Below, piece after piece: positions 9,825 through 17,306 of a DNA stretch of 48,316 nt. The notes under the pieces are model-generated. The model searched no databases, had not been told where the DNA came from, and saw only the letters and a list, made by a program, of their open reading frames with translations. Origin of the DNA: Gammaproteobacteria bacterium (GTDB lineage Bacteria > Pseudomonadota > Gammaproteobacteria > Steroidobacterales > Steroidobacteraceae); contig JANYLM010000037.1 in the NCBI GenBank assembly GCA_025357835.1, positions 1-48,316 on the forward strand, given 5' to 3'. Both the position numbers and the translations under genes were made by a program. How positions within the stretch are numbered: position 1 is the stretch's first letter; each line of letters opens with the position of its first letter.

Positions 9825-11078
9825 TTACCCGAATTCGCCCCAATCAGGAAAAGCCCGCAAGGCATCGACGTAATTGTGTATCACGTCCGTGTGGGCATCC
9901 TCCTGCCAGCCGCCGGGTCCGGGGTTCTTGAACAGATCGCGCGGACGGCCCAACTCGTCGATGGAATAGAGGGTGAAATTCAGCGCTTGCCGCGCTTCAT
10001 CGGCCAGGGTCGACGATCCGATGTCTTTCGCGTACAGGGCAAGCACCGCACCGTAAGTTGAATTGATGCCGCCCCAGGCCTGCTTATCTTCATCCTGCTC
10101 GTGACAAACCGTGACGCCAAATTCCTGATGAGTGAAGGTGGCGCGAACAAATTCCAGTAGCGCAGCGCAGTCTGCACACCAGTCGGGACCCAGCGCCGTT
10201 TTCTTCTCGAGCAAGTATCGCGCAAGATTCAGCGGCGCCCAGGCCGTTCGATTGGTGGGTGTGTCGTGATCCTCGAAGAATTGCGCAAACAGCGAACCAT
10301 CGGCGGCGGCGTTCGGTATCTGATAGTGCTTGATCCATTTCCACAGCGACTCGCAAGGAGCGGAAAACTCCTCGTATCCCTGCGCGAGCAACGCGTCGTA
10401 GAGCCGAAGAATGTAGGTCATGTTCCCTGATACCGGCCCGCGGCCGTCGCCATTTCTGTAATCGACCCGAAAGGGCCAGGGCGAATGGGACGCGTCACCG
10501 CTTTTCTGATTTGCGACAAGGATGCGGGCGTTGTGCAGTCCTTGTTCCAGGTACTTGCGCTCGCCGGTCGCCTCGAAAAGCAGCAGCAAAGAGTAGCCGG
10601 CGATGCCGCCCTTGTCGGGTTCAACTTCATACGGACGATCGCTCTGCGAGCCGCAATCCGCAGCCAGCGGAAACTGATCTCGTTTGCCGGTGGAGCGCGT
10701 GAACGCCGGATATTGACCGGAATTCGGGGTAAGTGCTTCCTGTACCAGGTAGTCGCCCATGGCGCGCGCCGTCCGCACAAACCTGGGATCCTGCTTGCCC
10801 CGCAATTCATGGAACTTAAGGTGGGAGAGAATGCCCATCCCGTTCTGAGTCGACGGGATGGTGTCCGTGCGATCGGGCATCGGAGTCCAGTCGCCATCGA
10901 GAAAGGTGGCCAGAACGAAGCGGGGATAGCCGTGCTCCGCCGGACATTGTTGGTAGAAATTCATTTCCCGATCGAGGGCGTCGTTCCAGGAAGTCCAAGG
11001 CCTCAACCGACCTTGGGCATCGAAACTTGCTACGTGCCCCGCGATACTTACCGGCGGGTGGGTGTGACGATTTGACAC
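9825..11078 (-). CDS. Uncharacterised alpha/alpha-toroid-like protein
   Basis: A 417-residue soluble protein. Repeating helical stretches with aromatic-acid patches (LRPWTSWNDALDREMNFYQ, YILRLYDALLAQGYEEF, RTAWAPLNLARYLLEKK, WGGINSTYGAVLALYAKD) suggest an (alpha/alpha)6 barrel as in six-hairpin glycosidases and epimerases such as AGE. No family signature or catalytic pair can be named with confidence. There is no signal peptide. The gene starts at a GTG and ends 11 bases from the convergent MFS stop, so it is its own unit or is led from the 11.1 kb intergenic region. A carbohydrate-active role is inference from fold impression only. Confidence 0.7.
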   Translation of the reverse strand: MSNRHTHPPVSIAGHVASFDAQGRLRPWTSWNDALDREMNFYQQCPAEHGYPRFVLATFLDGDWTPMPDRTDTIPSTQNGMGILSHLKFHELRGKQDPRFVRTARAMGDYLVQEALTPNSGQYPAFTRSTGKRDQFPLAADCGSQSDRPYEVEPDKGGIAGYSLLLLFEATGERKYLEQGLHNARILVANQKSGDASHSPWPFRVDYRNGDGRGPVSGNMTYILRLYDALLAQGYEEFSAPCESLWKWIKHYQIPNAAADGSLFAQFFEDHDTPTNRTAWAPLNLARYLLEKKTALGPDWCADCAALLEFVRATFTHQEFGVTVCHEQDEDKQAWGGINSTYGAVLALYAKDIGSSTLADEARQALNFTLYSIDELGRPRDLFKNPGPGGWQEDAHTDVIHNYVDALRAFPDWGEFG

Positions 11079-11288
11079 GCAATATTCCGAACCGGACTAA
11101 AGCGTCCGAGCCTAAGATACCTCCTAGTCGCGGGAACGCAAATGGCAAGTCCGCTAATGAACGGGCGCCGCTTTCTGTAGGAAGTAGTAAAGTTCTATGC
11201 CGACGGTGCAGATTGAAGCCACCGCTCCGCGCCCCGGCACCAGAGTTCGCGATTGACGCCGGCTATGGCGCTGATAGAGAGCACCAAT

Positions 11289-11316
11289 TTGACTTGGCGT
11301 GGCTATGGGGTCTAAC
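11289..11316 (+). promoter_or_regulatory. Possible promoter of the rubrerythrin operon
   Basis: TTGACT (11289-11294) lies 16 bases before TCTAAC (11311-11316), a 5/6 and 4/6 match to sigma-70 boxes, within the 270-base gap between the divergent toroid-like gene and the rubrerythrin gene. If used, transcription would start near 11323, inside the inverted repeat that covers the ribosome site, so either this promoter or the RNA-hairpin idea is wrong. Confidence 0.3.
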
Positions 11317-11338
11317 TTCCGAGTTTATCTGTCGGAAG
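11316..11338 (+). promoter_or_regulatory. Inverted repeat overlapping the rubrerythrin Shine-Dalgarno
   Basis: CTTCCGA (11316-11322) and TCGGAAG (11332-11338) are perfect 7-bp inverted repeats with a 9-base spacer. The right arm shares bases with the Shine-Dalgarno AAGGAG (11336-11341) of the GTG start at 11348. In RNA the hairpin would partly hide the ribosome site; in DNA it could be an operator. Which of these applies, if either, is not decided by the sequence. Confidence 0.45.
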
Positions 11339-11347
11339 GAGTGGGCT

Positions 11348-11761
11348 GTGAATTTAAAAGGTAGTAAGACGGAAAAGAATCTGAAGGATGCATTTGCAGG
11401 CGAATCGCAGGCGAATCGACGTTATTTGTACTTCGCAGCCAAGGCGGACGTCGAGGGTTTCAACGACGTGTCCGCGGTGTTCCGTTCCACCGCCGAAGGT
11501 GAAACAGGCCATGCTCACGGACATTTGGAGTACCTGGAAGCGGTGGGCGACCCGGCTACCGGACTGCCCATCGGCGCGACCTCGCTAAATCTCAAGGCCG
11601 CGATCGCAGGCGAAACTCACGAATACACGGACATGTATCCCGGCATGGCGAAAAGCGCCAGGGACGAGGGTTTCGGCGAAATCGCCGATTGGTTCGAGAC
11701 GCTGGCTAAAGCCGAACGCTCACACGCCAATCGCTTCCAAAAGGCTCTAGATAACCTTTAG
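11348..11761 (+). CDS. Rubrerythrin, diiron domain only
   Basis: A 137-residue ferritin-like protein of the rubrerythrin family. The diiron ligand pattern is visible in two helix pairs: [15 protein letters not shown] with [14 protein letters not shown], and [15 protein letters not shown] with [12 protein letters not shown]. The C-terminal rubredoxin domain of classical rubrerythrins is absent, so electrons must come from another protein. Members reduce hydrogen peroxide in the cytoplasm. GTG 11348 is chosen because AAGGAG lies just upstream and the protein begins like its relatives ([11 protein letters not shown]); the open frame from 11027 is non-coding. It heads a set with an Fe-S protein and a DUF3501 protein, a grouping seen in other proteobacteria and thought to act in peroxide/redox defence. 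Confidence 0.93.
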
Positions 11762-11792
11762 CTCTACGACGTCGCCGCGAGGGCGTCGACAC

Positions 11793-11816
11793 GCGGGCTC
11801 CGTTCTTGGAGCCCGC
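11793..11816 (+). terminator. GC-rich hairpin between rubrerythrin and the Fe-S protein gene
   Basis: GCGGGCTCC (11793-11801) pairs perfectly with GGAGCCCGC (11808-11816) around GTTCTT, followed by CACTTATTT, which is only a weak T-run. It could act as a partial terminator giving more rubrerythrin than downstream products, or as a processing or stabilising stem. It lies 23 bases before the Fe-S protein start. Confidence 0.6.
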
Positions 11817-11839
11817 CACTTATTTGGTCGGGAGATAGC

Positions 11840-13198
11840 GTGTCAGATGGACAGACCAAGACAGGCCGCGAAGGTAACCTGGAGGCACCCACACGTCATG
11901 CTCTTGGTTGGCGGGAACCGCAATTCTATGACGCTGATGCGTTGCAGAAGGAACTCGAAAGAGTATTCGATATCTGCCATGGTTGCCGCCGCTGCTTCAA
12001 TTTGTGTAATTCCTTTCCGACGTTGTTCGCTCTGATCGACGAATCAAAGACAGGCGAACTCGATGGCGTAGATAAAAGTGCCTTTGGCCAAGTGGTCGAC
12101 CAGTGCTACCTATGCGACATGTGCTACATGACCAAGTGCCCGTATGTGCCGCCGCACCCCTGGAACGTCGACTTTCCGCACTTGATGTTGCGCGCCAAAG
12201 CCGTCAAGAACCGCAATGGCGGCGCACGCTGGCGCGACAAGATCTTGAGTTCGACGGACATGGTCGGAAAGCTCGCAGGGATTCCCGTCGTCGCCGAAGT
12301 CGTCAACGCGGTCAATCGCAGTTCAGTCGGACGCAAGCTCCTGGACGCGGCGCTCGGCGTGCACCCTGACGCGCCCGTGCCGCCCTACCGATCCAATACC
12401 TTGCGCAAGCAGCTCGGCAAACGCCGCAAGCCGGCCGGCGCCGCGCAAGCAGCGGGAGTGACTCGCGGTAAAGTCGCCCTGTTCGCGACCTGCTACGGAA
12501 ATCGCAATGAGCCGCAGATCGGACTGGACCTCGTCAGCGTCTTCGAGCACAACGGCATCGAGGTTGCGTTGGTCGCAGCGGAGAATTGCTGCGGCATGCC
12601 CAAACTGGAACTGGGCGATCTGCAGGCGGTCGCAGATTTGAAGACCAAGAATCTGCCGCATCTGCTCGCGATGATCGAGCGCGGCTACGACATCGTCGCG
12701 CCCATTCCGTCCTGCGTGCTGATGTTCAAGCAAGAGCTGCCGCTGATGTTTCCGGATGAACCCGAGGTGGCGAGGGTCAAACAACATATGTTCGATCCTT
12801 TCGAATATTTGGCGCACAGGCACAAATCCGGAATGATGCGCACGGATTTCACGCGCTCCCTCGGTAAGGTGGCGTACCACGTCGCCTGCCATTTGCGCGT
12901 GCAGAATATCGGCCTCAAGACTCGCGACGTGTTGCAGCTGATCCCGGGAACCACAGTGGAGCCCATCGAGCGCTGTTCGGGCCACAACGGAACCTACGGC
13001 GTCAAGCGCGAGTTTCGCGACACCTCAATGAAGATCGGCAAGCCGGTCATCCAGCGCGTACAGGCGAGCGGCGCAGATTTCTATGCCAGCGATTGTCCGA
13101 TGGCCGGGCATCAAATCGAGAGCGGCTTGGAAAATGGGCCGCCGCCGACGCATCCACTTACTTTGCTCAGAATGGCCTACGGTTTGACGGGGACATAG
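11840..13198 (+). CDS. HdrB/GlpC-like Fe-S oxidoreductase of the rubrerythrin operon
   Basis: A 452-residue soluble Fe-S protein. Two ferredoxin-type [4Fe-4S] motifs lie near residues 46-60 (CHGCRRCFNLC) and 92-105 (CYLCDMCYMTKCP). Two CCG-like domains follow. The first has FATCYGN, ENCCGMPK and PSCVLM; the second has VACHLR, RCSGHNG and SDCPMAG. In the second domain CCG has become CSG, so its cluster would differ from that of HdrB or GlpC. The role is probably electron transfer, plausibly to rubrerythrin, which here lacks its own rubredoxin domain; that link is inference. GTG 11840 has GGGAG six bases upstream. The next gene starts one base after the stop. Confidence 0.88.
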   Translation: MSDGQTKTGREGNLEAPTRHALGWREPQFYDADALQKELERVFDICHGCRRCFNLCNSFPTLFALIDESKTGELDGVDKSAFGQVVDQCYLCDMCYMTKCPYVPPHPWNVDFPHLMLRAKAVKNRNGGARWRDKILSSTDMVGKLAGIPVVAEVVNAVNRSSVGRKLLDAALGVHPDAPVPPYRSNTLRKQLGKRRKPAGAAQAAGVTRGKVALFATCYGNRNEPQIGLDLVSVFEHNGIEVALVAAENCCGMPKLELGDLQAVADLKTKNLPHLLAMIERGYDIVAPIPSCVLMFKQELPLMFPDEPEVARVKQHMFDPFEYLAHRHKSGMMRTDFTRSLGKVAYHVACHLRVQNIGLKTRDVLQLIPGTTVEPIERCSGHNGTYGVKREFRDTSMKIGKPVIQRVQASGADFYASDCPMAGHQIESGLENGPPPTHPLTLLRMAYGLTGT

Positions 13199-13199
13199 T

Positions 13200-13784
13200 G
13201 TGAAGAAATTGCGGCGCGAGGAACTGCTGAGCCTGGAACAATACGCCGCCGACCGGACTAGGTTGCGCAGCGAAGTTATTGCCCACAAACAACGGCGCAA
13301 CGTTCAATTGGGACCCAATATGACTTGGTGTTTTGAGGATTACACCACCATACGCTATCAAGTCCAGGAGATGCTGCGCGCCGAGCGCATCTTCGAAAGC
13401 GGCGGCATCCAGGGCGAACTCGACGCTTACAATCCGCTGATACCCGACGGCAGCAACTGGAAAGTCACATTGCTGCTGGAGTTTCCCGATCCCGAGGTGC
13501 GCCGCGTCGCGCTCGAGAAAATGATCGGTGTCGAAGACCGCTGTTGGATACGCGTCAGCGAAATGGAGCGGGTGTTTGCGATCGCCGACGAAGACATGGA
13601 TCGCGAAAACGAAGAGAAGACCTCGGCGGTACATTTTCTGCGCTTCGAGCTGACACCCTCGATGATCGAAGCGATGCGAAGCGGCGCTAACTTGAACATG
13701 GGTGTCGATCATGACTACTATCGGCACTTGCTGAGCCCACTACCACGTCCGATCCGGGATACCCTGGGTCGCGATCTCGACTAG
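13200..13784 (+). CDS. DUF3501 family protein
   Basis: A 194-residue cytoplasmic protein matching DUF3501: an N-terminal LRREELLSLEQYAADR, then KQRRNVQLGPNMTWCFED, QVQEMLRAERIF, DAYNPLIPDG and the C-terminal LNMGVDHDYY. No catalytic motif is known for the family. It is found next to rubrerythrin and the HdrB/GlpC-like Fe-S protein, as here, which suggests a common role in peroxide defence. The GTG start follows the previous stop with one base between, so translation is likely coupled. Confidence 0.92.
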   Translation: MKKLRREELLSLEQYAADRTRLRSEVIAHKQRRNVQLGPNMTWCFEDYTTIRYQVQEMLRAERIFESGGIQGELDAYNPLIPDGSNWKVTLLLEFPDPEVRRVALEKMIGVEDRCWIRVSEMERVFAIADEDMDRENEEKTSAVHFLRFELTPSMIEAMRSGANLNMGVDHDYYRHLLSPLPRPIRDTLGRDLD

Positions 13785-13799
13785 CAACAGGAAATCGAC

Positions 13800-15836
13800 A
13801 TGGGCACGAGAACAGAGCCGGTGCGGTTGTCGGCGGCACCGATGAGCGGTGAAGGCGCTACTCTCGAGTGGCTGGATGCCCTGGCGAGCGGCGCTTGTAC
13901 TCCTGAGGCATTTTTGGGCGCAATGCGCCATCACTTCCAGGGAAACCGCGATGGGAGCTGGGAAGTTCTATCGCTGCTCGACCAACACTACCGCCGCGGG
14001 AAGATAAAGGCCGAGGTCTTCCGCTCGCTCAAAATGCGCCTTGAGGGCGCGGCGCTCAACGGCGAGGAGGGTGCGACGCTCCCGCAAGCGAGCGAAAGGC
14101 AAGAGGCGACAAGCAGTGTTGCCGCGCCCACCCCAGCGTCGCAGAACAAGCCACCACCAAAATCGCCCGCAGCCGTGCAAGAAGTGACCATAGGTGACTT
14201 ACTACGCAGCCGGTACTTGGTACGGGGAGTACTCGGGCGCGGCGGCATGGGCACGGTGTTCGAGGCGGTGGATGAGTATCGCCTCGACCTGCCGTCAACC
14301 GGTCAACGCATAGCCGTCAAAGTACTGCATAGGGCGGTTACCCGCCGGGAGGAGCTTCTCGCCGAACTGCAACGCGAGTTCCAGCATTTGCAATTGCTGT
14401 CTCATCCGAACATCGTTCGGGTACACGAATTTGACCGTGACGGCGAGTTCGCCTTCTTCACGATGGAGCTGCTGAACGGAGCGCTACTGAGCAAAGTGCT
14501 GAACGCGAGAAATTCGATTGCCTTGCCGCGACACTACGCGCTGGCCATCATGCGCGACGTGGGCGCCGCGCTCGCGCACGCTCATTCGCGTGGGGTATTA
14601 CATGGAGACGTCAATCCGCAGAATATATTTATTACCAATGACGGTGAATTGCGAGTCTTGGACTTCGGCGCCTCGCACAAATTGCGCCGGCCAAGCCCGG
14701 CCGTGGACAACGAATTATCGCAACGTGCTCCGGTCGCCACCGCAGGCTATGCAAGCTGCCAGTTGCTCGAAGGACAGCAGCCGGATGCCCGGGATGATTT
14801 GTTCGCATTTGCATGCGTAGCCTATGTACTGTTGTCCGGGCGGCACCCTTTTCCGGACTGCAGCGCCGTGGAGGCGCGCGCGCAGGCTTTGCGTCCGCGC
14901 CGACCTCCCCGACTCACGGGCCGCCAATGGCGACTCCTGCGGCAGGGCCTAGGGTGGGAACGCGACCGGCGTCCCTCGGACGTACGACAATGGCTGGACA
15001 AATTCGACCTCACCGGCGCCGCAGTTCGCCTACCCTCGTTGTCCGTACTTGCGGATGCACGGCGTCCCTGGAAACGTCAGGCCGTACTCGCGGTCGCGGG
15101 CATTATGACGTTCGTCTTGTTGGCGCTCGGTGGCTATTGGGCGGCGACGGAACGCGATTCCATCGCGCACCACGTCATGGAATGGACTGCCCGGGCGCGA
15201 GCCGCAGTCGACGCCCCTCATGCGTCGCCCAAGGCATCCGTACCTGCAGTTGCCCCGCCATCAGCATCCCTGACACCGCGTCCCACCCCCACTCAGAGAG
15301 CAGCTTCACAACCACCCCAGACTGACGCGCCCAGCACAGCGTCGACACCGCGCCCCACAGACACGGCGGCAGCTTCGAGGCCGTCCACTGCCGACACCTC
15401 ACCATTGCCTTCCGCCTCGCTTCCCGCGAGCACCCGAGCAGCCGTGGTTACTCAACCCTCCATCCAAGAGGCATCGGCTCACGCCGGTACTGGGTGGCCG
15501 ACTCGCGTGGAAATGGTGGCGGACACCGTCGACGTCCTGAGCAGCGAGACTACGGCGCGCGTCACCGTCCGTCGCAAAGGAAGTCTGCACGGCGACACGA
15601 ATTTTAGCTGGTGGACGGAATCCGGCACCGCAAAGCCCGGCCGAGATTTTGCGGCCGTGGCGCCTCGAGTCGAGCACATCGGGAACGGCAGCGTCAGCGT
15701 CAGTTTGAGCATCCCTGTTTTAAATACGCCACGCGCCCGAGCGAAAAGCTTTTATGTGGTAATCGACCGGACTGAAACGGGTGCCGCGGTGGGTGCGCGA
15801 ACACTGACGATGGTGACGCTACAACCCCCGGATTGA
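13800..15836 (+). CDS. Membrane-anchored non-RD Ser/Thr kinase with Calx-beta-like domain
   Basis: A 678-residue protein. Residues ~20-85 form a helical N-terminal domain; the kinase domain spans ~135-405, with the glycine loop GRGGMG at 146-151, AVKVL with K174, catalytic-loop HGDVNPQN with D270 and N275, and DFG at 288-290. HRD is replaced by HGD, making it a non-RD kinase, and the loop Lys is Asn; phosphotransfer looks possible but not assured. One membrane helix (~428-450) follows, then a long Pro/Ser/Thr/Ala-rich linker, and a Calx-beta-like domain (~560-678) expected in the periplasm. AGGA eight bases before ATG 13800 and the 15-base gap after the DUF3501 gene suggest the same operon. 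An extracytoplasmic sensor reporting to a cytoplasmic kinase is the likely design; its targets are unknown. Confidence 0.9.
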   Translation: MGTRTEPVRLSAAPMSGEGATLEWLDALASGACTPEAFLGAMRHHFQGNRDGSWEVLSLLDQHYRRGKIKAEVFRSLKMRLEGAALNGEEGATLPQASERQEATSSVAAPTPASQNKPPPKSPAAVQEVTIGDLLRSRYLVRGVLGRGGMGTVFEAVDEYRLDLPSTGQRIAVKVLHRAVTRREELLAELQREFQHLQLLSHPNIVRVHEFDRDGEFAFFTMELLNGALLSKVLNARNSIALPRHYALAIMRDVGAALAHAHSRGVLHGDVNPQNIFITNDGELRVLDFGASHKLRRPSPAVDNELSQRAPVATAGYASCQLLEGQQPDARDDLFAFACVAYVLLSGRHPFPDCSAVEARAQALRPRRPPRLTGRQWRLLRQGLGWERDRRPSDVRQWLDKFDLTGAAVRLPSLSVLADARRPWKRQAVLAVAGIMTFVLLALGGYWAATERDSIAHHVMEWTARARAAVDAPHASPKASVPAVAPPSASLTPRPTPTQRAASQPPQTDAPSTASTPRPTDTAAASRPSTADTSPLPSASLPASTRAAVVTQPSIQEASAHAGTGWPTRVEMVADTVDVLSSETTARVTVRRKGSLHGDTNFSWWTESGTAKPGRDFAAVAPRVEHIGNGSVSVSLSIPVLNTPRARAKSFYVVIDRTETGAAVGARTLTMVTLQPPD

Positions 15837-15936
15837 CAATAGCGCGCTCACCCTCAAACGGGAGCTGGTAGAACCCTAGGAACTGGTCCAACCCGCGAGG
15901 GTCGTGAGAAATGGCCGCAACGCTTGATCGCGAGCG

Positions 15937-15956
15937 GCAGATTCAATCCAATCTGC
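15937..15956. repeat. Short perfect hairpin between convergent genes
   Basis: GCAGATT (15937-15943) and AATCTGC (15950-15956) form a 7-bp stem with a CAATCC loop in the 183-base gap between the kinase gene and the convergent MHS transporter gene. No T-run follows on either strand. It may mark a bidirectional transcript end; nothing else is visible in this gap. Confidence 0.35.
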
Positions 15957-16019
15957 GGGTCTAAGGCGGCTGGCATGGTGAGAGTATGCCTTCGCGCCTG
16001 AAGCAGCGAGATTAAGGTC

Positions 16020-17306
16020 TCAGTCCTCGATAATGCGACTATGCACGCGAGTCTCCTGCATGGTCAGTGCGGTCAAAAAACTAACCCCCGCCAACACCGA
16101 AGCGTAGATATAGAATCCGCTCTCGAATCCGATCGATTTGAACCACAGCGCGACATACTCGGCGGTACCGCCGAATGCGGCATTGGCCAGGGCATACGGT
16201 ACCGACACTCCAAGAGCGCGTATGGCCGTGGGAAAGAGCTCAGCTTTTACCACGGCACTGATCGAGGTGTAGCCCGACTGGATCATCATGGCAGCGAAGA
16301 TTAGAAGAAAGGCAATCCACGATGAGCGGGCCGCAGCCACTCCGGTCATCACCGGCCAAGTGATTAGAGTGCCTCCTGCGAACGCAGCCAGCAGCATGGG
16401 CTTGCGCCCCACCTTGTCCGACAGCCAGCCAAAAAGCGGCTGTGCGACCATGAATGCGATTAGGCTGAGGGCGCTGATCTCGGTTGCCTGGTCCTTGGAA
16501 AACCCCGCGGTGTTGGTCAAGAACTTCTGCATGTAGGTGGTATAGACGTAGAAGACCATGGAGCCGCCGGCGGTAAGTCCCAAAACGGTTAAAACCTCGC
16601 GCGGATGCTCGAGAAAGAGCCGGCGCACGCCTTCGAGCGCCGTTCCCCGCTTCGCCGTGGGCACGAATGCCTGCGACTCTTGGATTCCACGTCGCAGCCA
16701 GTAGGCGACAATGGCCAGTGCCGCTCCGATCACGAAAGGAATTCGCCATCCCCAGGCGGCCATGTCGGCCTTGCGCAGCAGGTGCTGAAGGACGATCAGC
16801 ACCGCCAGCGCGGTCAGTTGACCGCCTATCAATGTTACGTAGTGGAAGCTGGACCAGAAGCCGCGATATTTGCGCCCGGCCATTTCGCTCATGTAAGTAG
16901 CACTGGCGCCGTATTCACCGCCCAGAGACAGGCCCTGAAAGATCCGCGCCAGCAGCAAAATGACAGGAGCCGCGACGCCCAGCGTCGCCGCTCCGGGACA
17001 CACCGCGATTACCAGCGATCCTCCGCACATCATGGATACCGACAGAGTCAGCGCGGCCTTGCGGCCCACACGGTCGGCATACAGCCCCATCAGCCACGCG
17101 CCTATCGGCCGGGCAAAGAAACCGACGGCAAACACGGCCGCGGTTTGCAGAAGTTGTGCAGTCTGATCGCCCTGCGGAAAAAAAATCGGCGCGAAATAAA
17201 GCGCCGCAGCCGAGTAGGTATACCAGTCGAACCACTCGACCAGATTGCCCGCCGAGCCGCCGATAACGGCTCTAATACGCGAAATGCCGGACTGTCCTGC
17301 GGACAT
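16020..17306 (-). CDS. MHS-family metabolite:H+ symporter (KgtP/ProP-like)
   Basis: A 428-residue, 12-helix major facilitator of the metabolite:H+ symporter family, which imports dicarboxylates, citrate, shikimate, betaine or proline. Hallmarks are GNLVEWFDWYTYSA in helix 1, RPIGAWLMGLYADRVGRK for the 2-3 loop motif, RIFQGLSLGGEYGASATYM in helix 5 and WLSDKVGRKPML for the 8-9 loop. The frame is open to 17396, but the Met at 17306 has GGAAGG five bases upstream and gives a normal N-terminus, so the 30-residue extension is rejected. It diverges from the GFA gene. Order of similarity suggests alpha-ketoglutarate-type substrates, without certainty. Confidence 0.9.
   Translation of the reverse strand: MSAGQSGISRIRAVIGGSAGNLVEWFDWYTYSAAALYFAPIFFPQGDQTAQLLQTAAVFAVGFFARPIGAWLMGLYADRVGRKAALTLSVSMMCGGSLVIAVCPGAATLGVAAPVILLLARIFQGLSLGGEYGASATYMSEMAGRKYRGFWSSFHYVTLIGGQLTALAVLIVLQHLLRKADMAAWGWRIPFVIGAALAIVAYWLRRGIQESQAFVPTAKRGTALEGVRRLFLEHPREVLTVLGLTAGGSMVFYVYTTYMQKFLTNTAGFSKDQATEISALSLIAFMVAQPLFGWLSDKVGRKPMLLAAFAGGTLITWPVMTGVAAARSSWIAFLLIFAAMMIQSGYTSISAVVKAELFPTAIRALGVSVPYALANAAFGGTAEYVALWFKSIGFESGFYIYASVLAGVSFLTALTMQETRVHSRIIED

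What the first reader, a model, noticed from the sequence alone, without database searches (positions are those of the whole stretch)
11348..15836. Rubrerythrin, Fe-S protein and DUF3501 joined by a transmembrane kinase
The rubrerythrin/HdrB-GlpC-like/DUF3501 trio recurs in proteobacteria but has no established mechanism. Here rubrerythrin lacks its rubredoxin domain, so the Fe-S protein could be its electron donor, and DUF3501 would be a third partner. A kinase with an outer Calx-beta-like domain follows 15 bases later in the same direction, suggesting that the peroxide-reducing unit is under phosphorylation control from an extracytoplasmic signal. This is my best candidate for an undescribed system.
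Basis: partly seen in the sequence, partly recalled or inferred. Interest (0 to 1): 0.7.

Follow-up and report, generated by a model that had tools for sequence, protein, structure and literature searches.

The report
OxyR-wired rubrerythrin trio beside a kinase
A known set of three genes thought to destroy peroxide has, just upstream, a DNA box that the peroxide sensor OxyR is predicted to bind, and the membrane kinase gene beside it was found there in only one small lineage of the genomes read, so it is unlikely to be the system's general switch.

Summary
The trio is the published "aerobic-type" rubrerythrin system (rubrerythrin, GlpC-like Fe-S oxidoreductase RFO, DUF3501; PMC5114695), where RFO was already proposed as electron donor. 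The kinase is real, but it directly follows DUF3501 in only 3 of 15 readable genus loci (one clade) and 0 of 66 other relatives' loci; a close relative keeps the flanks without it. Ten contig lengths shared by kinase and DUF3501 hits hint at wider linkage in uncultured relatives. The trio here is more likely controlled by OxyR: a 14/16 OxyR-type box (11252-11288) abuts the predicted rubrerythrin promoter. Of 128 rubrerythrin upstream regions, 23 have an OxyR-type box and 90 a palindrome TTAGACTnAGTCTAA, none both; 606 controls give 0 and 6. The palindrome goes with a second, mostly Irr-like, Fur-family protein (44 of 48 genomes; OxyR-type 0 of 14). A stem-loop (11793-11816) separates rubrerythrin from RFO/DUF3501; such stems are common in this gap (77 of 100; controls 22 of 150), suggesting uneven expression. 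Kinase control is unsupported, not excluded. All regulation is predicted from sequence.

The parts
11252..11288 (+). OxyR-type box ATTG-N7-CTAT-N7-ATAG-N7-CAAT (14 of 16 consensus bases), abutting the -35
   Evidence: consensus from PMC5720770 passages
11289..11316 (+). predicted promoter TTGACT-N16-TCTAAC, conserved in the genus
   Evidence: alignment of 7 upstream regions; the stricter consensus scan reported no promoter in 11000-16200
11334..11341 (+). likely ribosome binding site GGAAGGAG before the GTG start
11348..11761 (+). rbr: aerobic-type rubrerythrin without rubredoxin domain
   Evidence: sulerythrin and other one-domain rubrerythrins among solved relatives
11793..11816 (+). stem-loop between rbr and rfo: 10 pairs (one G-U), loop of 4, followed by a T-rich tail (5 T in 8 bases)
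   Evidence: z -3.95; z -3.79
11840..13198 (+). rfo: GlpC-like Fe-S oxidoreductase (two 4Fe-4S-type cysteine motifs, CCG parts)
13200..13784 (+). DUF3501
   Evidence: fold of PDB 3fjv
13785..13799 (+). 15-base gap with AGGA before the kinase start
13800..15836 (+). transmembrane Ser/Thr kinase with marginal C-terminal Calx-beta domain; lineage-specific neighbour

Best explanation
The window carries the known aerobic-type rubrerythrin system (rubrerythrin, RFO, DUF3501), which is likely induced by peroxide through OxyR, predicted to bind the box found directly upstream of the predicted rubrerythrin promoter, while the kinase gene 15 bases after DUF3501 is a neighbour found in one lineage of the genomes read and its effect on the trio is untested. 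Shown by sequence: gene order, OxyR-type box, stem-loop, an OxyR gene with both redox cysteines elsewhere in the genome, and the patchy presence of the kinase. Inferred: peroxide oxidises OxyR and OxyR activates transcription from the box; the stem-loop between rubrerythrin and RFO would end part of the transcripts or stabilise the rubrerythrin message, giving much rubrerythrin and less RFO/DUF3501; rubrerythrin reduces peroxide at its di-iron site; RFO passes electrons to it; DUF3501, which has no conserved cysteine and a fold matched well only by 3fjv, would act as adaptor. The kinase would ride on read-through from this promoter and sense something in the periplasm, with targets unknown.
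For: Trio; RFO lies beside DUF3501 in 78 of 80 relatives' loci and rubrerythrin in 75 of 80. OxyR box: window 14/16; at least 12/16 in 23 of 128 unique rbr upstream regions against 0 of 606 control regions; seen directly before the -35 in 6 of 7 aligned genus regions. Operator classes exclude each other: palindrome 90, OxyR 23, both 0, neither 15 (Fisher 1e-15). Place: 46 palindrome, 8 neither, 0 OxyR among loci with xseB or parE; 13 OxyR, 2 neither, 0 palindrome elsewhere. Second Fur-family protein in 44 of 48 palindrome genomes and 0 of 14 OxyR-type genomes (Fisher 1e-10). OxyR gene C109:68676-69557, 293.5 bits, CLRDQALEVC; katG has a 12/16 site upstream and oxyR an 11/16 site. Stem-loop: 77 of 100 rbr-rfo gaps have z below -2, against 22 of 150 control gaps. 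Kinase patchiness.
Against: No expression or binding data. The OxyR gene is below the NCBIfam cut-off (293.5 of 329 bits), as are all matches in the 118 genomes searched, own included. Twelve of the 14 OxyR-type genomes belong to one genus, so the class test counts related genomes; two of the 14 (window genome, G009) had no Fur match of any kind and are uninformative; G018's second match was taken by me as a copy of canonical Fur (both near 149 bits). A second Fur protein also occurs in 13 of 26 genomes outside the genus that lack DUF3501, so it must have other targets. Two genus genomes (G004, G013) have neither operator at threshold. The stem-loop cannot exist where the gap is short: 18 of 122 unique gaps are under 45 bases (G003 has 10); 15 of 78 strong stems, the window's among them, have a T-rich tail and could be plain terminators. 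Kinase and DUF3501 hits share 10 contig lengths, and those kinases are scattered over the kinase tree, which speaks for an older link than the genome set shows.
Confidence: 0.7

Rival explanations
1. The kinase is a dedicated regulator of the trio: a periplasmic signal read by its outer domain would make it phosphorylate RFO or DUF3501.
Against: Not beside the trio in 12 of 15 genus loci and in 66 of 66 other relatives' loci (64 with at least 800 bases downstream); absent from the syntenic site of G008; gaps of about 110 and 153 bases in relatives; G021 has a related kinase beside a ligase-like gene but no DUF3501 match; 15 kinase-domain matches in this genome. A search for rubrerythrin + threonine kinase + phosphorylation + operon gave 3 papers; the one read in passages ties no kinase to rubrerythrin.
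Confidence: 0.12
2. The kinase is a passenger: a fast-evolving membrane kinase gene that settled between DUF3501 and the ligase/MFS genes and acts elsewhere.
For: Flanks without kinase in G008; kinase plus ligase-like gene without trio in G021; kinase identity 57% (G018) and 65-67% (G015) where RFO is 84% and 92%, DUF3501 80% and 84%, and rubrerythrin 98% (G018; not on the G015 contig).
Against: Tight gap with a plausible ribosome binding site here; shared contig lengths are more than one recent event would give.
Confidence: 0.55
3. The OxyR-type box is a chance match and the trio is constitutive or under another regulator.
For: No experiment; OxyR gene below the curated cut-off; two genus genomes lack the box.
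Against: Box in 12 of 14 genus genomes with a readable upstream region; 0 of 606 controls reach the threshold.
Confidence: 0.12
4. The stem-loop at 11793-11816 is simply the terminator of a one-gene rbr unit, and RFO/DUF3501 have their own promoter.
For: GC-rich stem with a T-rich tail in the window (5 T in 8 bases); 15 of 78 strong stems in this gap have such a tail.
Against: 63 of 78 have none; short gaps in some genomes; no sigma-70-type promoter reported in 11000-16200 (which also missed the predicted rbr promoter); terminator-like sites in this stretch are no more than in shuffles (3 against 4.7).
Confidence: 0.35

Closest known systems
Aerobic-type rubrerythrin system RBR-RFO-DUF3501 (PMC5114695)
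   Same: Same three genes; rubrerythrin without rubredoxin; RFO proposed as electron donor
   Different: That paper does not mention a kinase (0 occurrences) or OxyR (0 occurrences); here an OxyR-type box, a stem-loop after rbr and a kinase neighbour
DUF3501-rubrerythrin operon with oxyR in Sideroxydans (PMC7852563)
   Same: Trio clustered with an OxyR gene, so the same peroxide link
   Different: There the oxyR gene is the neighbour; here the box is at rbr and oxyR is on another contig
OxyR regulon promoters (PMC5720770)
   Same: ATAG-N7-CTAT-N7-ATAG-N7-CTAT spacing; 14 of 16 bases
   Different: No binding test here; target is a rubrerythrin operon
Irr-controlled mbfA/rubrerythrin-like genes in alphaproteobacteria (PMC3413700)
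   Same: A Fur-family repressor before a ferritin-like peroxide gene; resembles the palindrome class found in relatives
   Different: The window's genus lacks palindrome and second Fur protein; mbfA is a membrane ferritin, not the trio
Transmembrane Ser/Thr kinases (PknB type)
   Same: Kinase domain, one predicted membrane span, C-terminal outer part
   Different: Not a PASTA kinase by score (164.5 of 450 bits); marginal Calx-beta instead

Membership tests
Aerobic-type rubrerythrin system | Ferritin-like rubrerythrin without rubredoxin domain | tested here: met
Aerobic-type rubrerythrin system | Adjacent DUF3501 (PF12007) | tested here: met
   225 bits
Aerobic-type rubrerythrin system | Adjacent COG0247/GlpC-like Fe-S oxidoreductase with CCG domain | tested here: met
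Aerobic-type rubrerythrin system | Peroxide reduction with electrons from RFO | not testable with these tools
   needs biochemistry; proposed, not shown, in PMC5114695
OxyR-regulated promoter | Four tetranucleotides at N7 spacing next to the promoter | tested here: met
   14/16; 0 of 606 controls at 12 or more
OxyR-regulated promoter | OxyR protein with both redox cysteines in the genome | tested here: met
   score below the NCBIfam cut-off (293.5 of 329 bits); the role of the two cysteines is recalled
OxyR-regulated promoter | Peroxide induction dependent on OxyR | not testable with these tools
   needs experiment
PASTA-type kinases (PknB/Stk1, NF033483) | Curated score of the PASTA kinase model | tested here: not met
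   164.5 of 450 bits
Calx-beta domain proteins (PF03160) | Domain score over cut-off | tested here: inconclusive
   26.3 of 27 bits

The most novel reading that the evidence does not exclude
The aerobic-type rubrerythrin system runs on one of two interchangeable switches: an Irr-like Fur protein at TTAGACTnAGTCTAA, or OxyR. Lineages that lost the Irr-like gene, such as the window's genus, moved the trio out of its xseB-parE place and rewired it to OxyR; a stem-loop after rbr sets a high rubrerythrin to RFO ratio; the kinase is a later, local addition.
Probability: 0.5. Interest if true: 0.6.

Novelty: new variant of a known kind. Interest (0 to 1): 0.45.

Why it matters
The trio is found from archaea to mitochondria of some protists (PMC5114695, PMC7050145), yet in the papers seen here the roles of DUF3501 and RFO are proposed, not tested. 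Two operator classes that exclude each other, one tracking a second Fur-family gene, give a direct handle on when cells use it: an Irr-like switch in most relatives, peroxide in this genus. The stem-loop after rbr suggests the three proteins are not made in equal amounts, which bears on whether they form one complex. PMC5114695 wondered whether separate genes allow differential expression; this gives it a testable element.

Tried and rejected
Order-wide kinase near the trio: weak kinase hits upstream in 39 of 80 loci turned out, where the gene was read (L071), to be a different kinase in what looks like a nusB-thiL-pgpA cluster; rejected as part of the system.

Kinase gap as an operon mark: not conserved in length.

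RNA family for the stem-loop: one weak CRISPR-repeat match inside the kinase gene, below threshold, and nothing at the stem-loop. PADLOC hits of the kinase lie almost wholly in the kinase domain and were not used.

Does the second Fur gene carry the palindrome itself? Of 20 loci one has a good copy (13/14, G114) and two have weak ones (11/14): no general autoregulation.

First controls: 700 upstream regions that still included sequence shared with rbr gave 1 OxyR-type match and 44 palindromes; regions near rbr were then left out, giving 606. The place table counted three loci without gene calls (L125, L134, L141) as relocated and left out loci whose upstream region also stood in the named set; one search replaces it.

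Motif literature: 'TTAGACT' gave 1,442 papers, the 20 listed unspecific; Irr + Fur family + rubrerythrin + gammaproteobacteria gave none; rubrerythrin + threonine kinase + phosphorylation + operon gave 3, one read in passages. PMC2739297 reports rubrerythrin isoforms in Sulfolobus ascribed to unspecified modification; the three proteins it names as both phospho-stained and differentially expressed do not include rubrerythrin.

Rows dropped: the stem-loop test used 100 of 122 unique gaps; 18 under 45 bases and 4 over 250 were left out. The class-against-Fur test used the 72 genomes with a readable rbr upstream region. The kinase search in relatives scored the best 10 candidates per genome. G002 has DUF3501 at a contig end and was not read for context. 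Class-level loci carry only 1.5 kb on each side.
Full report
Observation. The four genes are present at the stated coordinates and strand. Rubrerythrin is 137 residues with two ExxH motifs and no rubredoxin part; sulerythrin and other one-domain rubrerythrins are among its solved relatives. The Fe-S protein is GlpC-like (254 of 278 bits for the GlpC equivalog model, so not filed as GlpC itself). DUF3501 scores 225 bits and has a solved relative of unknown function, 3fjv. The kinase keeps its catalytic motifs; its Calx-beta domain is just under the cut-off.

The trio is known. PMC5114695 (abstract, passages and section 15 read) named this set the aerobic-type rubrerythrin lineage with RFO and DUF3501, and proposed that RFO compensates for the lost rubredoxin domain. 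PMC7050145 (passages) calls it a functional module in some mitochondria. PMC7852563 (passages) notes the set beside oxyR in Sideroxydans. A search for DUF3501 in the held library found 5 papers.

Conservation. 85 of 118 genomes, own included, have DUF3501. In 80 relatives' loci read, RFO is beside it in 78 and rubrerythrin in 75. Of 78 loci with gene calls (window included) 56 have a parE-like and 52 an xseB-like gene, 59 either; the trio stands between the two (gene names such as parE, xseB and nusB are recalled from the sequences, not from a call). In the window's genus it has left that place.

The kinase. Among the 80 relatives' loci a kinase within 4 kb downstream of DUF3501 is found in two, G018 and G015. 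With the window this is 3 of 15 loci in the genus and 0 of 66 outside it (64 with at least 800 bases downstream). None of 30 class-level loci has one, with only 1.5 kb of flank. G014 has the kinase at a contig end, followed by genes that look by eye like the same ligase-like and MFS genes, so probably the same place. The trio tree puts the window, G018 and G015 together (support 76), with G008 as their sister (97). G008 has the same flanks and no kinase: DUF3501 and the ligase-like gene are 70 bases apart. G021 has a related kinase beside such a ligase-like gene and no DUF3501 match. The gap is 15 bases here, about 153 in G018 (start called by script) and about 110 in G015 (from the alignment). 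The genome has 15 matches to the kinase domain, 14 over the cut-off.

Against this, the best-120 lists of kinase homologues and DUF3501 homologues share 10 contig lengths besides the window's own: 4926, 3660, 3262, 55975, 11560, 11874, 148625, 40003, 3498 and 45883, with the same source tag in all 10. I take these as the same contigs (inferred; positions were not seen, and both lists are cut at 120, so this is a lower bound). These kinases are scattered over the kinase tree (the common ancestor of the linked ones spans 124 of 133 tips). So kinase and DUF3501 may have been neighbours for longer, in uncultured relatives, than the genome set shows.

Promoter. Aligned upstream regions of seven genus members show a conserved TTGACT...CTAA promoter and, directly before it in six of them, an OxyR-type box (G004 lacks it). 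[quoted passage not shown] the window box matches at 14 of 16. In 128 unique rubrerythrin upstream regions 23 reach 12 or more, against 0 of 606 regions upstream of other genes in the same loci (regions near rbr left out; gene starts were called by my own script). Twelve of the 23 belong to the window's genus; the other 11 are two relatives (G048, G076) and nine named loci whose titles point to several other lineages.

The other class. 90 of the 128 regions have a palindrome close to TTAGACTnAGTCTAA (11 or more of 14; controls 6 of 606). No region has both, 15 have neither. Place goes with class: of 54 loci with xseB or parE 46 have the palindrome, 8 neither and none the OxyR box; of 15 loci elsewhere 13 have the OxyR box, 2 neither and none the palindrome. 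A second Fur-family protein is found in 44 of 48 palindrome genomes, 0 of 14 OxyR-type genomes and 7 of 10 with neither. The four palindrome genomes without it are 74-90% complete drafts. Two of the 14 OxyR-type genomes, the window's and G009, had no Fur match at all, so they say little. Of 20 such proteins read (19 from genomes with DUF3501 and G049 without), the script counted an HxH[FL] motif in 18; G084 was missed through a slicing fault, as its sequence shows HHHFY. The exception, G024, scores best with a PerR model, below cut-off, and has CxxC; G024 has no palindrome. The script's second CxxC call (G091) may come from the frame upstream of its likely start. The two members tested score best with NCBIfam IrrA (104 and 130 of 150 bits, below cut-off). 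That Irr boxes read TTAGAA-NNN-TTCTAA is recalled. PMC3413700 (passages) describes Irr boxes before a ferritin-like gene. Relatedness inflates these tests: the 14 OxyR-type genomes stand for three lineages (the genus, G048, G076).

OxyR is present: 293.5 bits with CLRDQALEVC. KatG has a 12/16 site upstream, and an 11/16 site lies just before oxyR; 5 of 606 control regions reach 11. 97 of 118 genomes, own included, have an OxyR-like match at E 1e-60 or better, so OxyR presence itself does not separate the classes.

Stem-loop. Between rubrerythrin and RFO lies a stem of 10 pairs, one of them G-U (11793-11816; z -3.79, -3.95). Of 100 such gaps (45-250 bases, out of 122 unique gaps) 77 have z below -2, against 22 of 150 control gaps between co-directional genes (Mann-Whitney 1.5e-26). 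78 have a stem of at least 8 pairs, with 77 distinct sequences, against 37 of 160 controls; 15 of the 78, the window's among them, have a T-rich tail. The place is kept while the letters change, which argues for the structure; whether it terminates, attenuates or protects is open.

Mechanism. I commit to peroxide control through OxyR in this genus, with the stem-loop giving more rubrerythrin than RFO and DUF3501, rubrerythrin as the peroxide reductase and RFO as its donor. Gene order, box, stem and distributions are shown by sequence; every functional step is inferred. The kinase may be co-transcribed here, but nothing ties its activity to the trio.

Novelty. The trio is known, and the kinase neighbour is local in the genomes read. 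The two operator classes, their link with the second Fur gene and the conserved stem-loop were not seen in the listings and passages; most of the papers listed there were not opened, so this is a statement about those searches only.

Noticed in passing
rbr upstream regions of relatives, e.g. L199, L215, L255: Palindrome TTAGACTnAGTCTAA before rubrerythrin in 90 of 128 unique regions, tracking a second, mostly Irr-like Fur-family gene; never together with an OxyR-type box.
   Followed up: yes
window 11793-11816 and rbr-rfo gaps of relatives: Strong stem-loop kept in place with changing sequence between rubrerythrin and RFO.
   Followed up: partly
window 9825-11078 (-): 417-residue protein without Pfam or NCBIfam match, kept near the trio in G008 and G018.
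   Followed up: no
L071 15207-16526 (-) and relatives: A different kinase with what looks like a cyclic-nucleotide-binding C-terminus, in what looks like a nusB-thiL-pgpA cluster; weak kinase hits upstream of the trio in 39 of 80 loci.
   Followed up: partly
L281, upstream of katG: OxyR-type site (12/16) before katG in the window's genome; no AhpC over the curated cut-off.
   Followed up: partly
G091/L289, G064/L292 and similar: Fur-like reading frames run far upstream of the likely start, so the true starts of these genes are unsettled.
   Followed up: no
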